The notes under the pieces were generated by a model, which was not told the origin of the DNA, searched no databases, and saw only the letters and a program-made list of their open reading frames with translations. Positions 31,938-38,072 of a stretch of DNA of 64,000 nucleotides are shown piece after piece; within the stretch, counting starts at the first letter, position 1, and each line of letters starts with the position of its first letter. A program made the position numbers and the translations under genes. Source of the stretch: Micrococcales bacterium (GTDB lineage: Bacteria; Actinomycetota; Actinomycetes; Actinomycetales; Cellulomonadaceae); assembly GCA_009785115.1 (NCBI GenBank), contig WQWY01000011.1, positions 24,556-88,555 of the forward strand, in the 5' to 3' direction.

Positions 31938-33179
31938 TCACTCAGGCGCGCTGCCGCCTCTGGCCTCGGGGAGCAAGGGCTTCCAGTCCTCGTCGTCCTT
32001 CCACTCCTCCACCGGGAGACGAGAGCCACCCAGACCCTTCAGACCCTGGCCCATCTTCCGCTGCTGCTGGGGCTGCCCAGCAGCACCGGCGGTACCACCG
32101 ACCATGCCCGGCGGGTGCCCCGCACCTGCGGCCCCCGCACCCGAGACCCCCGCGCCTGCGCCTGGGGCGCCGACAGGACCACCAGCACCGCCGACGGCAC
32201 CGGGAGCGTAACGTCCGGTACCTGCTTCCAGACCGCGCAAGCCCATGCCCATAGGGCGTCCGGTCGGGCCGATATTGGCACCCGACGCACCAGCGGCACC
32301 AGCGCCGACCTGGCCGGCGAGCATCCCACCACCAGCGCCGCCCGCGCCCGAGGCTCCGCCGAGGCCGCCGGCGCCCAGCAGACGCCCCGCGGCCAGCAGG
32401 CCCGCCCCGCCAGCACCGGTCAGGAGCCCGCTGCCGACGACGCTGTCAGCAGCGCCCGCCTTCCCAGGAGACAGCGGATACCCCGAGGGGTGGACTCCCG
32501 CAGGTGTGGGGTCCTGACCAGGGGCGAACACTCCCCCGCCGGGAAGACCGGGGATGTACCCGGCAGGGTAGACAGCATCCTGACCCCCGGGGATGCGCCG
32601 GTTCGGACCGACCCACCGGTCGGTGTCCTCCTCACCCACCTCCGGAGGATCAGGAAATACCCCTTCGTCCCCACCGCCGGGGTATTCCTGCTCGAGGGCC
32701 ACCAGCCGGTAGTAGGCCCGGTCGAGGTGGTCGCACACAGCCAGGTAGCGCTGACGGGCCGCTTCTTGCTGGGCGGCCTCGTCAGCCTCGGCCTGCATCT
32801 GACCAAGGTGGTCAGTGGTGAAGTCGACCAGGTCCCACCCCCACTGCAACAACGTCTGACGCACCGGAGCAGCCCGCACCTTCTCCACCACGTCCAGCGC
32901 CTCCAACGCCATCTGACGTCCCTCGTTGGCGTAGTCGACCTCCTCCCGGGCCTTGCTCACCCATGCAGCCTCGGTCTCTAGCTCGGCCGCATACCCCAAC
33001 GTCGCTTCCCGGTATGCCTCACCGGTCTGAGCACCGAACACCGGCTGAGCGGCCATCGTCGTCAACGACTCGGCGAACTCCTCCTTCCAGCCCACCAAGG
33101 TGTCTGAGGCATGGATCCCCCAGAACTCACCCTCATAGATCGCGTAAAGCTCCCGCTTCCAGTCCTTGTCCACCATCAC
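31938..33179 (-). CDS. ESX/PPE-like protein: helical N-terminus, Gly/Ala-rich C-terminus
   Basis: Helical N-terminal ~170 aa followed by long GGAGA-rich tail ending 'LPVEEWKDDEDWKPLLPE'; next to mycosin-like proteases. Confidence 0.55.
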   Translation of the reverse strand: MMVDKDWKRELYAIYEGEFWGIHASDTLVGWKEEFAESLTTMAAQPVFGAQTGEAYREATLGYAAELETEAAWVSKAREEVDYANEGRQMALEALDVVEKVRAAPVRQTLLQWGWDLVDFTTDHLGQMQAEADEAAQQEAARQRYLAVCDHLDRAYYRLVALEQEYPGGGDEGVFPDPPEVGEEDTDRWVGPNRRIPGGQDAVYPAGYIPGLPGGGVFAPGQDPTPAGVHPSGYPLSPGKAGAADSVVGSGLLTGAGGAGLLAAGRLLGAGGLGGASGAGGAGGGMLAGQVGAGAAGASGANIGPTGRPMGMGLRGLEAGTGRYAPGAVGGAGGPVGAPGAGAGVSGAGAAGAGHPPGMVGGTAGAAGQPQQQRKMGQGLKGLGGSRLPVEEWKDDEDWKPLLPEARGGSAPE

Positions 33180-33267
33180 GGCCTCCTATGTTTTCTCATC
33201 GAATGTTTCTCGCTCGGACGTCGAGCGTGGTTCGTGCGCGCCAGGCCTGGTGGCCCGTCGCGTCTCC

Positions 33268-34602
33268 TCACACGGCTCCTCCTCGCCCGCGCCTGGCGAC
33301 CACGACCACCGCCACGACCACCCCCGCACCCAGCAGCACAACCACCACCGCGACCACCACCCACACCCACCCCGGCACACCGGCCGTGACGTCCGCACCG
33401 GACGAACCCGAGGAATCCGGCGACGGCGAGACCGTCGCCGTCGGCGCGGTAGCGAACGGGTCCGGAGAGAACGCCCCAGCGATATCAGCCGCAGACAAGT
33501 CCTCACGGAACTTCGCCTCAGGAACGATCAACGGACTCACATCCGGATACCCCGTCGGATCATCAGCAACCATCCCCACCAGGTTCACCGTCCCGTGCCC
33601 CACCACGGCCGGATCACCAGGGACCGCATGAGCCACCAGCACCTGCAACAGCTGGTTCGGCGTCGCCTCAGGATGAGCCGACCACACCACCGCCAACACA
33701 CCAGCAACGATCGGCGTCGCGAACGAGGTGCCAGCACCAAGCCTCGTCGGAACCCAGTCATGAGTGCTCAAGTCCCCTTGAAGCAAGATGCCCACACCCG
33801 GAGCCGCGACGGTGATCTTGCGCACCGGATACGGACCACGCGAAGTCCCCTCACCCATCACCTGCCCGTCCACCCCGACCGCCTGGACACCGACAGTGCC
33901 GTTGAGCTCACCGATTGACGCCAAGTCCCCAGGCTGGGAAGGGAGCGAGGAGACGATGACCACGCCTTGGTTCAGTGCCCACGCCACCTCTTGACGCGTC
34001 CACGCGCTAATAGGGCCGCTGGTCTGGGTGCTGATGATCTTCGCACCGTCGTTCACTGCCTGAACGATCGCCGAACCCAGACCACCACACATGGCGGTGT
34101 TGCGGAGATTTCCAGCAGGGCTACCGATCGCGTAGAACTTCACCGTCGCATCAGGAGCTATCCCGCGGACCGACGGCTGGCCCTCGAAGCCGACGCCCGT
34201 GCCGACGATGGTCGCTACGACATTGCTGCCGTGGGAGGTCGAGAACGTGAGTGCCTCGCCCGTGGCAGGCAGGTTCGCCCCGGTGTCGGGGTCCTTGCAC
34301 AAGGACCTCCCACCGTTCATGATCTGCACGTCAGCACCCTGGAGCACCGGCAGACTCGGGGTGATACTGGCGTCGATGACCGCCACGGTCACCCCCTGGC
34401 CCCTGTGTCCAGCCGCGTGGACCTGGGCCGTGCCCAACGTCTGGTGGTACCACTGACCGTCACCGTCCACCGCCGACGCAGGACCTGCCACCCCCACGAG
34501 CGGCACCAGAGCGACCACAGCCGCGACCACCCACCCCCAACCACCACCGCGCCGGCGGCTAACCGAGCTCGCATGTCGCCTTTCGCCCACACCCGCCATC
34601 AC
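33268..34602 (-). CDS. S8 serine protease, mycosin-like (type VII secretion-associated)
   Basis: Signal-like N-terminus; triad contexts 'VAVIDASI' (D), 'STSHGSNVVATI' (H), 'GAGTSFATPIVAGVLA' (S); C-terminal TM anchor. Confidence 0.9.
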   Translation of the reverse strand: MMAGVGERRHASSVSRRRGGGWGWVVAAVVALVPLVGVAGPASAVDGDGQWYHQTLGTAQVHAAGHRGQGVTVAVIDASITPSLPVLQGADVQIMNGGRSLCKDPDTGANLPATGEALTFSTSHGSNVVATIVGTGVGFEGQPSVRGIAPDATVKFYAIGSPAGNLRNTAMCGGLGSAIVQAVNDGAKIISTQTSGPISAWTRQEVAWALNQGVVIVSSLPSQPGDLASIGELNGTVGVQAVGVDGQVMGEGTSRGPYPVRKITVAAPGVGILLQGDLSTHDWVPTRLGAGTSFATPIVAGVLAVVWSAHPEATPNQLLQVLVAHAVPGDPAVVGHGTVNLVGMVADDPTGYPDVSPLIVPEAKFREDLSAADIAGAFSPDPFATAPTATVSPSPDSSGSSGADVTAGVPGWVWVVVAVVVVLLGAGVVVAVVVVARRGRGGAV

Positions 34603-34672
34603 GACCTCCTAGCCTTGATCGAACGCCCAACCGATCTCATACGTGCTGATCCTGTCGACCCCTCACGTCTCC

Positions 34673-35965
34673 TCACACGGTTCCTCCTCGCCCGCGTCTG
34701 GCGATCACGATCACCGCCACGACCACCCCCGCACCCAGCAGCACAGCCACCACCGCGACCACCACCCACACCCACCCCGGCACCCCGTTCGTGCTGCCCG
34801 AGCCCGCCGTGCCGGATGAGTCCGGCGACGGCGAGACCGTCGCCGGCGGAGCGGTAGCGAACGGGTCCGGAGAGAACGCCCCAGCGATATCAGCGGCCGA
34901 CAGGTCACCGTCAAACCGCGCCTCCTGCTCGATCAACGGGTTCACGTCCGGATACCCCGTCGGCTCATCAGCGATCATCCCCAACAGGTTCACCGTCCCG
35001 TGCCCCACCTTGTCCGGGTCACCAGGGATGGCGTGAGCCACGAGAACCTGCAACAACTGGTTCGGCGTCGCCTCAGGATGAGCCGACCACACCACCGCCA
35101 GCACACCAGCGGTGATCGGCGCCGCGAACGACGTGCCCTGACCGATCCTGGTCGGGGTCCAGTCGTGAGTGCTCAAGTCCCCTTGAAGCAAGATGTTCAC
35201 ACCAGGAGCGGCGACAGTGGTTTTGCGCACCGGGTACAGACCCTGCGTCGTCCCCTCACCCAACACTCGCCCGTCCATGCCGACCGCCTGGACACCAACA
35301 GAAGCGTTCAACTCACCAACAGAACTCAGACTCCCTGGTTGAGCGGGAAGCGAAGCAACGATGATCACGCCCTGGTTCAACGCCCACGCCACCGTCTGCC
35401 GCGTCCATGGATCGATGGGGCCGCTACGCTGGATGCTGATGATCTTCGCCCCGTCACCCACAGCTTGGACGATCGCATCCGACAAGCCTGCGCACGTGGA
35501 GGAGCGGTCGATAGCGGGATCTCCATCAGCGTAGAGTTTTACTGTCGCGTCAGGAGCTATCCCGCCGACCGAGGGCTGGCCGTCGAACCCAGCGCCCGTA
35601 CCGACGATGGTCGCCACGACATTGCTGCCGTGGGAGGTCGAGAACGTGAGCGCCTCGCCCGTGGCAGGCAGGTTCGCCCCGGTGTCGGGATCCTTGCACA
35701 AAGACCTCCCACCGTTCATGATCTGCACGTCAGCGCCCTGGAGCATCGGCAGGCTCGGGGTGATACTGGCGTCGATGACCGCGACGGTCACCCCCTGGCC
35801 TCGATGCCCCGCCGCGTGGACCTGGGCCGTGCCCAACGTCTCGTGATACCACTGACCGTCCACCGCCGACGCAGGACCTGCCACCCCCACGAGCGGCACC
35901 AGAGCGACCACAGCCGCGACCACCCACCCCCAACCACCACCGCGCCGGCGGCTAGCCCGGCTCAC
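34673..35965 (-). CDS. S8 serine protease, mycosin-like (tandem paralogue)
   Basis: Very similar to 33268..34602; same triad 'VAVIDASI', 'STSHGSNVVATI', 'GQGTSFAAPITAGVLA'; C-terminal TM anchor. Confidence 0.9.
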   Translation of the reverse strand: MSRASRRRGGGWGWVVAAVVALVPLVGVAGPASAVDGQWYHETLGTAQVHAAGHRGQGVTVAVIDASITPSLPMLQGADVQIMNGGRSLCKDPDTGANLPATGEALTFSTSHGSNVVATIVGTGAGFDGQPSVGGIAPDATVKLYADGDPAIDRSSTCAGLSDAIVQAVGDGAKIISIQRSGPIDPWTRQTVAWALNQGVIIVASLPAQPGSLSSVGELNASVGVQAVGMDGRVLGEGTTQGLYPVRKTTVAAPGVNILLQGDLSTHDWTPTRIGQGTSFAAPITAGVLAVVWSAHPEATPNQLLQVLVAHAIPGDPDKVGHGTVNLLGMIADEPTGYPDVNPLIEQEARFDGDLSAADIAGAFSPDPFATAPPATVSPSPDSSGTAGSGSTNGVPGWVWVVVAVVAVLLGAGVVVAVIVIARRGRGGTV

Positions 35966-36456
35966 GCCTGACCCCCGGTACCCGCAGCAGCGTCGCCCGT
36001 ACCCGCAGCGCCGCCCCCGGCGCCGGGGGTCGTCGCGTTCCCGCTGCTCTCCCCGTCGGAGTCGCCCGCAGCGGGAGGCCTGGTGGTGTTGCGGGTGATC
36101 ACGGTCACGGCCTGCTCCACCGCCAGCTGGGAGGCCTCGCTGTCCGCCGCGTGGTCGGCCCGCATCAACAGGTACGCGCCCTCGGCCAGCTGCTCCTCAC
36201 GGGCCTCCAGCTTCTCCTTCGAGGCGCGCGAGTCGGCCGCCACCATGTCAGCGATCGCGTCGATCGCCGCCTGACAACGGGCGACGGTGGGCGAGCCGGA
36301 GCCTGTCAGCCCTTCCCTGTACACCGCCCACTCGCTGGGAAGGCCGCCCTCGGCAACCTGCATGGCCCTGGCATGCTGGACCAGGCGCTCACGCGCGACA
36401 CCGACCGCGCTAGAGACATCTTCAAAGGCTGACACGCCGGGAACCCCTCTCGACAA
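35962..36456 (-). CDS. Small helical protein with Gly/Ala-rich tail (possible WXG100/ESX-like)
   Basis: Two amphipathic helical stretches around 'EGGLPSEWAVYREGLTGSG', disordered G/A/T-rich C-terminus; 4-bp overlap with downstream mycosin. Confidence 0.55.
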   Translation of the reverse strand: MSRGVPGVSAFEDVSSAVGVARERLVQHARAMQVAEGGLPSEWAVYREGLTGSGSPTVARCQAAIDAIADMVAADSRASKEKLEAREEQLAEGAYLLMRADHAADSEASQLAVEQAVTVITRNTTRPPAAGDSDGESSGNATTPGAGGGAAGTGDAAAGTGGQA

Positions 36457-36532
36457 CGATCGACCAACCGGTCATATCGGTCACCCTACAGCGGCACCAC
36501 GAAGACCACCGTCACCCTGTGGACTGAAGAGC

Positions 36533-36552
36533 TGTCCCCAATATTGGGGACA
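36533..36552. repeat. 20-bp perfect palindrome tgtccccaatattggggaca
   Basis: Exact self-complementarity; between divergent 35962..36456(-) and 36774..38072(+). Confidence 0.9.
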
Positions 36553-36773: not shown

Positions 36774-38072
36774 ATGAGGTGGATGTCGGGGGGCGCGCTT
36801 AGCCTCGCTGTCGTGGATGAGCAGCGGTGGGTGCCGCGGGTCGCGTGGTTCTTGACCGGGCAGGCGGTGTCGCTGTTCGGCTCTGGTGTGGTGGGGTTCG
36901 CGATCATCTGGCACGTCGCCCTGGACACGCGCAGCGCGACGAGCTTCGTCATCGTCTCGTTCGTGGCCACGGCGCCACAAGGCCTGATGTCGCTGGTCGG
37001 CGGCCTGTGGGCCGACCGCTACAACCGCAAGGCCCTGGTGATCGGGGCCGACGCGGCCATCGCCGTCATCACGGTAGCCCTCGCGTGGCTGATGCTCTCC
37101 GGTCAGGACTCGTTGTGGCTGATCGCCGGGGCGCTGCTGCTGCGGGCGCTGGGCGGGGGCATCCAGGTGCCCACCGTGGCCGCGATCCTGCCGTCCATCA
37201 CACCTGAACGTCACCTGCTGCGCGTCAACTCGATCTTCGGCTCTGTGCAGTCGGCGGTGTACCTGGCGGCCCCAGCCGTGGCGGCGGTGCTGCTGAGCGT
37301 CTGGGAGATCGGGTGGATCTTGCTGGTCGACGTGGTCACAGCCCTGATCGCGATCGTGATCCTGGCGCTGATCGCCGTGCCAGCCACACCCAAGGTCCCG
37401 GTCCGTGCGCCCGCGTCCGGTGCGGGTGCGGGCAGCGCCGACGACGAGAAGCCCGCGAGAGGCGGCATGTCCGAGGCTGTGAGGTTCGTCCGCAACCACC
37501 CGGGGCTGCACCGGACGATGCTGCTGGCCGTCGTCGTGGCCGCGCTCATCATGCCTGGGGGCTGGGCGATACCGATCATCGTGGTCAAGCTGTTCGGCGA
37601 CTCGCTCTGGATGCTCGCCTCCGCGGAGATCGGCTACTCGGGCGCCGTCATCGTGGGCGGGCTCATCCTCGCGGCCTGGGGCGGCCTGCGGAACCGCATG
37701 ACCATGATGCTGCTCGCGACAGGCGCCTGGGCGGTCTTCACCATCGCCCAGGGCCTGGCACCGTGGGCGCTCCTCTACATCGCGCTGTGGATCCCCTGGG
37801 GTCTGGTCAGCCCCGCGCTGATGGCGGTGTCGCTGACCGTGCTGCAGGAGGAGACGCCCCCGCACCTGCTCGGCCGCGTCATGGGGCTGCTGCAGGTCGT
37901 GTTCCTGCTCGTCGTGTCGTTCGTCCTGCTGCCGCTCGGCCCGCTGATGGACGCCGTCTCACCCCGCTGGGTGCTCGTGGTCGGTGGCGTCCTGGCGCTG
38001 CTGGCCACGTTCCTGCTCGCCCGGAAGGCACCACCGCTCATGGCGCCGCCCAAGGCCGAGACCACCACCTGA
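36774..38072 (+). CDS. MFS transporter
   Basis: 'FLTGQAVSLFGSGVVGFAIIWHVAL...SLVGGLWADRYNRKALVIGAD' MFS motif A; 12-TM-like hydrophobicity. Confidence 0.93.
   Translation: MRWMSGGALSLAVVDEQRWVPRVAWFLTGQAVSLFGSGVVGFAIIWHVALDTRSATSFVIVSFVATAPQGLMSLVGGLWADRYNRKALVIGADAAIAVITVALAWLMLSGQDSLWLIAGALLLRALGGGIQVPTVAAILPSITPERHLLRVNSIFGSVQSAVYLAAPAVAAVLLSVWEIGWILLVDVVTALIAIVILALIAVPATPKVPVRAPASGAGAGSADDEKPARGGMSEAVRFVRNHPGLHRTMLLAVVVAALIMPGGWAIPIIVVKLFGDSLWMLASAEIGYSGAVIVGGLILAAWGGLRNRMTMMLLATGAWAVFTIAQGLAPWALLYIALWIPWGLVSPALMAVSLTVLQEETPPHLLGRVMGLLQVVFLLVVSFVLLPLGPLMDAVSPRWVLVVGGVLALLATFLLARKAPPLMAPPKAETTT

What the first reader, a model, noticed from the sequence alone, without database searches (positions are those of the whole stretch)
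31938..36456. Orphan type VII/ESX-like operon with two mycosins and two putative substrates but no secretion core
Four minus-strand genes in series: small helical protein with G/A-rich tail, mycosin-like S8 protease, second mycosin-like protease, and a 413-aa helical plus Gly/Ala-rich protein ending in an acidic Trp-containing tail. Mycosins normally accompany EccB/C/D/E and WXG100 proteins; no EccC-type ATPase or other Ecc component is visible in the window. This may be a stand-alone protease/substrate module or one that uses a core encoded elsewhere.
Basis: partly seen in the sequence, partly recalled or inferred. Interest (0 to 1): 0.66.

Follow-up and report, generated by a model that had tools for sequence, protein, structure and literature searches.

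The report
Core-less satellite module of type VII secretion
A four-gene bacterial operon, apparently copied from part of a type VII protein-secretion locus, carries two subtilisin-like proteases and a likely secreted protein but no export machine; it shares a DNA switch with the machine encoded elsewhere in the same genome, so it looks like an add-on cargo module rather than a stand-alone system.

Summary
The four minus-strand genes are real: p164, mycB, mycA and p413. The window holds no secretion core, but the genome does (EccB, EccD, two full EccC ATPases, canonical mycosin, WXG100s). About 40 actinobacterial loci carry relatives of these mycosins, and 31 of them have EccC or EccB in the fetched flanks. 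The usual order there is WXG100s, small helical protein, divergent mycosin (one or two), Gly/Ala-rich p413-like protein, then EccC. The window operon is therefore a core-less copy of that segment. It is absent from the same site in 12 relatives and belongs to a lineage-specific expansion of about 13 such mycosins. The N-terminus of p413 is predicted to have a PPE/WXG100-like fold. Both window mycosins keep Asp-His-Ser but lack the oxyanion-hole Asn.

New here: a 20-bp palindrome, TGTCCCCA-N4-TGGGGACA, sits upstream of the operon. It occurs 9 times exactly in this genome and once in 221 other genomes of the family. Eleven of its 12 sites (exact or one mismatch) head T7SS operons, including the core, with a -10-like box at helical-turn spacings. 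The module most likely belongs to the core's regulon and supplies substrates to it. Secretion and protease activity are untested.

The parts
36533..36552 (.). Palindrome TGTCCCCAATATTGGGGACA, candidate operator shared with the T7SS core
36483..36488 (-). -10-like box TAGGGT, 44 nt after the palindrome
36444..36451 (-). Shine-Dalgarno-like GAGAGGGG before the likely p164 start GTG at 36435
35962..36456 (-). p164: small helical protein (likely start 36435, 157 aa), in the position of the small helical gene of complete T7SS loci
34673..35965 (-). mycB: divergent mycosin-like S8 protease, 430 aa, signal segment and C-terminal TM helix, oxyanion Asn replaced by Ala
33268..34602 (-). mycA: divergent mycosin-like S8 protease, 444 aa, 84% identical to mycB, oxyanion Asn replaced by Ser
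31938..33179 (-). p413: N-terminal WXG100/PPE-like helical domain, Gly/Ala-rich middle, acidic Trp-containing tail; candidate T7SS substrate

Best explanation
The operon is a satellite of the organism's T7SSa (ESX) system: a duplicated and diverged copy of the 'small helical protein - mycosin - PPE-like Gly/Ala-rich protein' segment that, in complete loci, lies between the WXG100 genes and EccC. Shown: gene content and order, homology of the mycosins and p413 to complete loci, presence of a core elsewhere, recent insertion at this site, purifying selection on the mycosins, and a shared palindrome. Inferred: one regulator binds the palindrome and switches on core and satellites together, probably as an activator because the -10-like boxes lie at helical-turn steps. 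p413, perhaps with p164, is exported without Sec through the shared EccC/EccB/EccD core. The Sec-exported, tail-anchored mycosins join the outer face of that core, either to process the Gly/Ala-rich linker slowly or, since the oxyanion Asn is lost, mainly as structural or docking subunits specific to this cargo.
For: Genome core: EccB 181 bits, EccD 88 bits, two EccC over 790 bits per half, WXG100s. Same segment inside complete T7SS loci of other species: 31 of 40 loci have EccC or EccB in the fetched flanks. In this genome a p413 paralogue with a shared C-terminal region lies about 100 bp upstream of EccC. Mycosins are a lineage expansion, about 13 copies against 0-5 in relatives. The helicase-tad neighbourhood lacks the module in 12 relatives. 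p413 fold PPE-like; members of its family hit WXG100 and PPE. Shared palindrome: 11 of 12 sites before T7SS operons including the core's divergent promoter; helical phase p about 0.001 on 8 non-duplicated flanks. Precedent for core-less satellites served by a parental core: ESX-5a-c (PMC4852179). Precedent for a non-catalytic mycosin role: PMC5082899.
Against: No export, binding or protease data. Window p164 does not score above shuffles against the small-helical family (5.3 bits), and profile-profile comparison gives only 24% probability. The p413 PPE match has a weak Foldseek E-value (0.08), and the window p413 tail does not beat its shuffles. The regulator is unidentified. Sites at duplicated loci are not independent. 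Modules on C38, C13, C26 and C16 show no clear palindrome in the DNA at hand (C38 is cut by a contig end).
Confidence: 0.72

Rival explanations
1. The operon is a decaying duplicate: a by-product of repeat-driven duplication of T7SS genes, now drifting, with proteases that have lost function.
For: Oxyanion Asn lost in both mycosins; other copies in the genome are frameshifted or fragmentary; p164 and the p413 N-terminus evolve fast, dN/dS 0.68 and 0.49 against C18.
Against: All four reading frames are intact; mycA/mycB dN/dS 0.29 and mycA/C18 0.19; perfect palindrome and -10-like box kept upstream.
Confidence: 0.13
2. Stand-alone protease/substrate module that works without a T7SS core, for example Sec-exported surface proteases acting on p413 or on envelope proteins.
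For: Mycosins carry Sec-type signals and membrane anchors and could act alone; no core gene at the locus.
Against: p164 and p413 have no Sec-type N-terminus; homologues sit inside complete T7SS loci; shared operator with the core.
Confidence: 0.07
3. The palindrome is a duplicated promoter repeat rather than a regulator site, so the link to the core is ancestry only, without co-regulation.
For: Flanks of C11/C18b, of C33/C25 and of C22/C28 are similar, as expected of copies.
Against: Flanks at C7, C21, C14, C1 and C18a are unrelated, yet the palindrome is kept and the -10-like box follows at helical-turn spacings; the centre 4 bp vary while both arms are fixed.
Confidence: 0.08

Closest known systems
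ESX-5a/b/c satellite regions of Mycobacterium tuberculosis (PMC4852179)
   Same: Core-less, dispersed duplicates of the substrate part of an ESX locus; ESX-5a is reported to act through the parental core.
   Different: They hold an esx pair plus pe/ppe. Here there is no WXG100 gene, there are one or two mycosins per module, and there is a shared palindromic operator.
Mycosin MycP (TIGR03921)
   Same: S8 fold, D/H/S triad, N-terminal signal segment and C-terminal TM helix, T7SS linkage.
   Different: 77-83 bits against a cut-off of 279; D-[ST]-G motif altered to D-A-S-I; oxyanion Asn lost; separate clade from EccB-adjacent mycosins.
PPE proteins / EspB of mycobacterial ESX
   Same: WXG-type helical hairpin plus a third long helix in the p413 model; long low-complexity C-terminal part; neighbouring mycosin gene.
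   Different: No Pfam PPE match for window p413; about 18% identity in the structural match; EspB itself was not among the hits shown.
Complete T7SSa loci of Cellulomonas, Actinotalea, Microbacterium, Leifsonia, Bifidobacterium
   Same: Same small helical - mycosin - p413-like order, sometimes with two mycosins.
   Different: There the segment lies in one locus with EccD-like, FHA and EccC genes; the window copy stands alone.

Membership tests
Type VIIa (ESX) secretion system | EccC/EccB/EccD core encoded at the locus | tested here: not met
   No Ecc gene was found at the operon; core on contigs C33, C15, C8
Type VIIa (ESX) secretion system | Core present in the same genome | tested here: met
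   EccB TIGR03919 181 bits, EccCa/EccCb over 790 bits, EccD PF19053 88 bits, WXG100
Mycosin (TIGR03921) | Score above the curated cut-off | tested here: not met
   77 and 83 bits, cut-off 278.75
Mycosin (TIGR03921) | S8 triad Asp/His/Ser | tested here: met
   AVIDAS, TSHGSN, GTSFA[TA]P
Mycosin (TIGR03921) | Oxyanion-hole Asn | tested here: not met
   Ser in mycA, Ala in mycB; canonical mycosins in the same alignment have AGN or GGN (role of the residue in PMC5082899)
Mycosin (TIGR03921) | Signal peptide and C-terminal membrane anchor | tested here: met
   Kyte-Doolittle maxima 2.17 starting at residues 15-25 and 3.2-3.3 near the C-terminus; hydropathy only, no signal-peptide predictor
WXG100 / PPE | Pfam match of the window protein | tested here: not met
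   No hit for p413 or p164; 5 of 30 and 3 of 30 members of the p413 alignment do match
WXG100 / PPE | WXG-type helix-turn-helix fold | tested here: inconclusive
   p413: PPE4 first hit, prob 0.99, TM 0.49/0.57, E 0.08; p164: hairpin, no meaningful Foldseek hit
ESX-5a-type core-less satellite | Duplicate of part of an ESX locus, distant from it, without core genes | tested here: met
ESX-5a-type core-less satellite | Secretion through the parental core | not testable with these tools
   Needs an eccC deletion and secretome

The most novel reading that the evidence does not exclude
Mycosins that have lost the oxyanion Asn are exchangeable, largely non-catalytic subunits which, encoded with their own PPE-like cargo in dispersed satellites and driven by one dedicated operator, re-programme a single shared T7SS core for different substrates.
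Probability: 0.2. Interest if true: 0.75.

Novelty: new variant of a known kind. Interest (0 to 1): 0.5.

Why it matters
In mycobacteria mycosins are essential to T7SS, yet their protease activity is dispensable and EspB was the only known substrate (PMC5082899, 2016). Here mycosins are multiplied and travel with a PPE-like partner gene, away from the core, and have repeatedly lost an oxyanion-hole residue. That gives a natural system for asking whether a mycosin helps define which cargo a core exports. The operator gives a sequence handle: it predicts which scattered genes belong to the T7SS regulon, including operons of unknown proteins that end in WXG100 genes.

Tried and rejected
Single-protein search with p413 in 58 relatives found only the five own-genome copies; a family HMM was needed. 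p164 against Pfam, NCBIfam and the small-helical family, plus its Foldseek search, did not place it. Sequence profiles of the p413 and small-helical families against PDB chains are swamped by coiled coils. Promoter/terminator consensus scan: nothing; the palindrome was found by reading the upstream DNA. The p413 acidic tail as a conserved secretion signal: clear for the paralogues on C38, C13 and C15, not above shuffles for the window copy. EspB membership: suggested by the low-complexity C-terminal part and the neighbouring mycosin, but EspB did not appear among the structural hits shown. Motif in the literature: no relevant paper.

Full report
Observation. They form a tight series: p164 and mycB overlap by four bases, and the next gaps are 70 and 88 bases. 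Pfam finds only the S8 domain in mycA and mycB and nothing convincing in p164 or p413. The mycosin model TIGR03921 is the best NCBIfam match, at 77 and 83 bits, far below its cut-off of 279. p164 probably starts at GTG 36435 behind GAGAGGGG.

A core exists elsewhere. The window lies on contig C11 of a 2.48-Mb, 39-contig genome. That genome has one EccB, two EccC proteins of about 1320 aa scoring over 790 bits with both halves of the EccC model, EccD, WXG100 genes and a canonical mycosin next to EccB on C33.

What the operon copies. A scan of named genomes with the mycosin family returned Cellulomonas, Actinotalea, Microbacterium, Leifsonia, Klugiella, Bifidobacterium and others. Of 40 loci with a family mycosin, 31 have EccC or EccB in the fetched flanks and 18 have both. 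The recurring order is eccD-eccB-mycP on one strand and, divergently, WXG100, WXG100, small helical protein, divergent mycosin, Gly/Ala-rich protein, EccD-like membrane protein, FHA protein, EccC. Several loci have two mycosins in a row. The window operon is this segment with the mycosin doubled and the core genes missing. In the same genome, C18 carries a sister module with one mycosin; C38 and C13 carry mycosin plus p413-like genes; on C15 a mycosin and a p413-like gene sit directly before EccC. The C15 copy shares about 550 bp of its 3' part at 85% DNA identity with C38 (about 460 bp with C13), but not its 5' part, so N-terminal domains vary on a common C-terminal region.

History. The own-genome mycosins branch among relatives from complete loci as a lineage expansion: about 13 copies here, counting fragments at contig ends and frameshifts, against 0 to 5 in 58 relatives. 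mycA and mycB are sisters, dN/dS 0.29. Sister tandem pairs also occur in C. citrea, C. denverensis, Actinotalea soli, Cellulomonas sp. APG4 and Leucobacter, which means repeated duplication or gene conversion. In 12 same-genus genomes the helicase next to the window operon is followed by tad genes, and no match to p413, mycA or the MFS gene was found between them; the module is a derived insertion.

Proteins. An HMM of the p413-like N-termini from other species gives 35-38 bits to the C38, C13 and C15 paralogues, 19 to C18 and 12.4 to window p413; the best of 1000 shuffles is 6.3. AlphaFold2 of residues 2-200 gives helices 24-43 and 49-102 around a short turn and a third long helix 122-164 (pLDDT 78). 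The first PDB match is PPE4 of ESX-3 (prob 0.99, TM 0.49/0.57, E 0.08), with PPE41 and PPE15 lower, among BAR-domain noise. Five of 30 family members hit WXG100 and three hit PPE. p164 is modelled as a helical hairpin (pLDDT 84) without a structural match; its link to the small-helical genes rests on position and on the C18 homologue. Neither p164 nor p413 has a Sec-type hydrophobic N-terminus.

Mycosin active site. Asp, His and Ser are kept, but where canonical mycosins have AGN or GGN the window copies have LPS (mycA) and LPA (mycB); C18 and C16 also lack the Asn, as do single copies in Leifsonia flava, C. composti and others. Pairwise alignment with a solved subtilase puts the same Asn opposite the Ser of mycA. 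In MycP1 this Asn coordinates the oxyanion hole; N239Y blocks cleavage of EspB while secretion persists, and inactive MycP1 even raises secretion (PMC5082899). Weak or absent proteolysis with a structural role is therefore plausible, but untested.

Operator. Reading upstream of p164 shows the perfect palindrome TGTCCCCAATATTGGGGACA at 36533-36552. TGTCCCCA-N4-TGGGGACA occurs nine times exactly in this genome, plus three sites with one mismatch; the reversed control gives none at that stringency. With up to one mismatch it is absent from 58 relatives, and exact copies occur once in 221 other genomes of the family. Eleven of the 12 sites precede T7SS or T7SS-like operons: the window module; the C18 module; the C14 mycosin; the divergent core promoter on C33 (WXG100 operon and eccD-eccB-mycP); a second divergent eccD-type promoter on C25; WXG100 genes on C7, C22 and C28; operons that end in WXG100 genes on C18 and C21; and a gene on C1 for a 561-aa protein that follows a p413-like Gly-rich ORF. 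The exception, on C8, precedes a tad-like gene. Seven of the eight WXG100 matches above cut-off lie in these operons; the one at C7:111478 carries an internal stop. A -10-like TANNNT box lies 22, 25, 32-33 or 44 nt from the palindrome in 11 promoters, against a background of 0.02 per such window. The helical phasing has p about 0.001 on eight flanks that are not copies of each other, which points to an activator. The regulator is unknown, and no paper with this motif in a T7SS context was found.

Comparison. Core-less copies of ESX substrate genes that work through a parental core are known as ESX-5a, b and c (PMC4852179). The present modules work like these in outline but differ in carrying mycosins, in lacking WXG100 genes and in sharing a palindromic operator. 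They are filed as a new variant of a known kind. Steps shown: anatomy, homology, insertion, selection on the mycosins, operator. Steps inferred: co-regulation by one factor, export through the shared core, role of the mycosins.

Noticed in passing
L004 (contig C26) 6907-12655: A lone family mycosin gene sits between rplL (L7/L12) and rpoB, in the middle of a ribosomal/RNA polymerase gene pair (identified by eye from the translations).
   Followed up: no
window 36533-36552 and 11 further places in the genome: Palindrome TGTCCCCA-N4-TGGGGACA marks a candidate T7SS regulon with spacing in helical-turn steps to a -10-like box.
   Followed up: yes
ends of contigs C38, C33, C14, C15, C25: Several contig ends fall inside mycosin genes, so the assembly is broken by this repeat family; C25 and C15 may join.
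   Followed up: partly
L009 6694-8098 and L001 1907-3302: Mycosin copies on C8 and C33 are split between two frames (frameshift or assembly error).
   Followed up: no
L030, L031, L034, L041, L055 and the window: Tandem mycosin pairs are each other's closest relatives within each species, suggesting repeated duplication or concerted evolution.
   Followed up: partly
L002 6826-8807 and L015 7084-9411: Operons of unknown proteins (400-aa and 396-aa first genes) ending in WXG100 genes and headed by the palindrome: candidate T7SS effectors.
   Followed up: partly
L019 3123-7469 and L020 7976-12313: Two more multi-domain FtsK/EccC-like proteins of about 1450 aa on C19 and C14, more distant from EccC than those of C15 and C8.
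   Followed up: no
whole genome G000: At 2.48 Mb the genome is smaller than the same-genus relatives (3.3-4.9 Mb), yet has the most family mycosins of those compared.
   Followed up: no
window 36774-38072: An MFS transporter gene seems to share the insertion between the helicase and tad genes with the module; no match to it was seen at that site in 12 relatives.
   Followed up: partly
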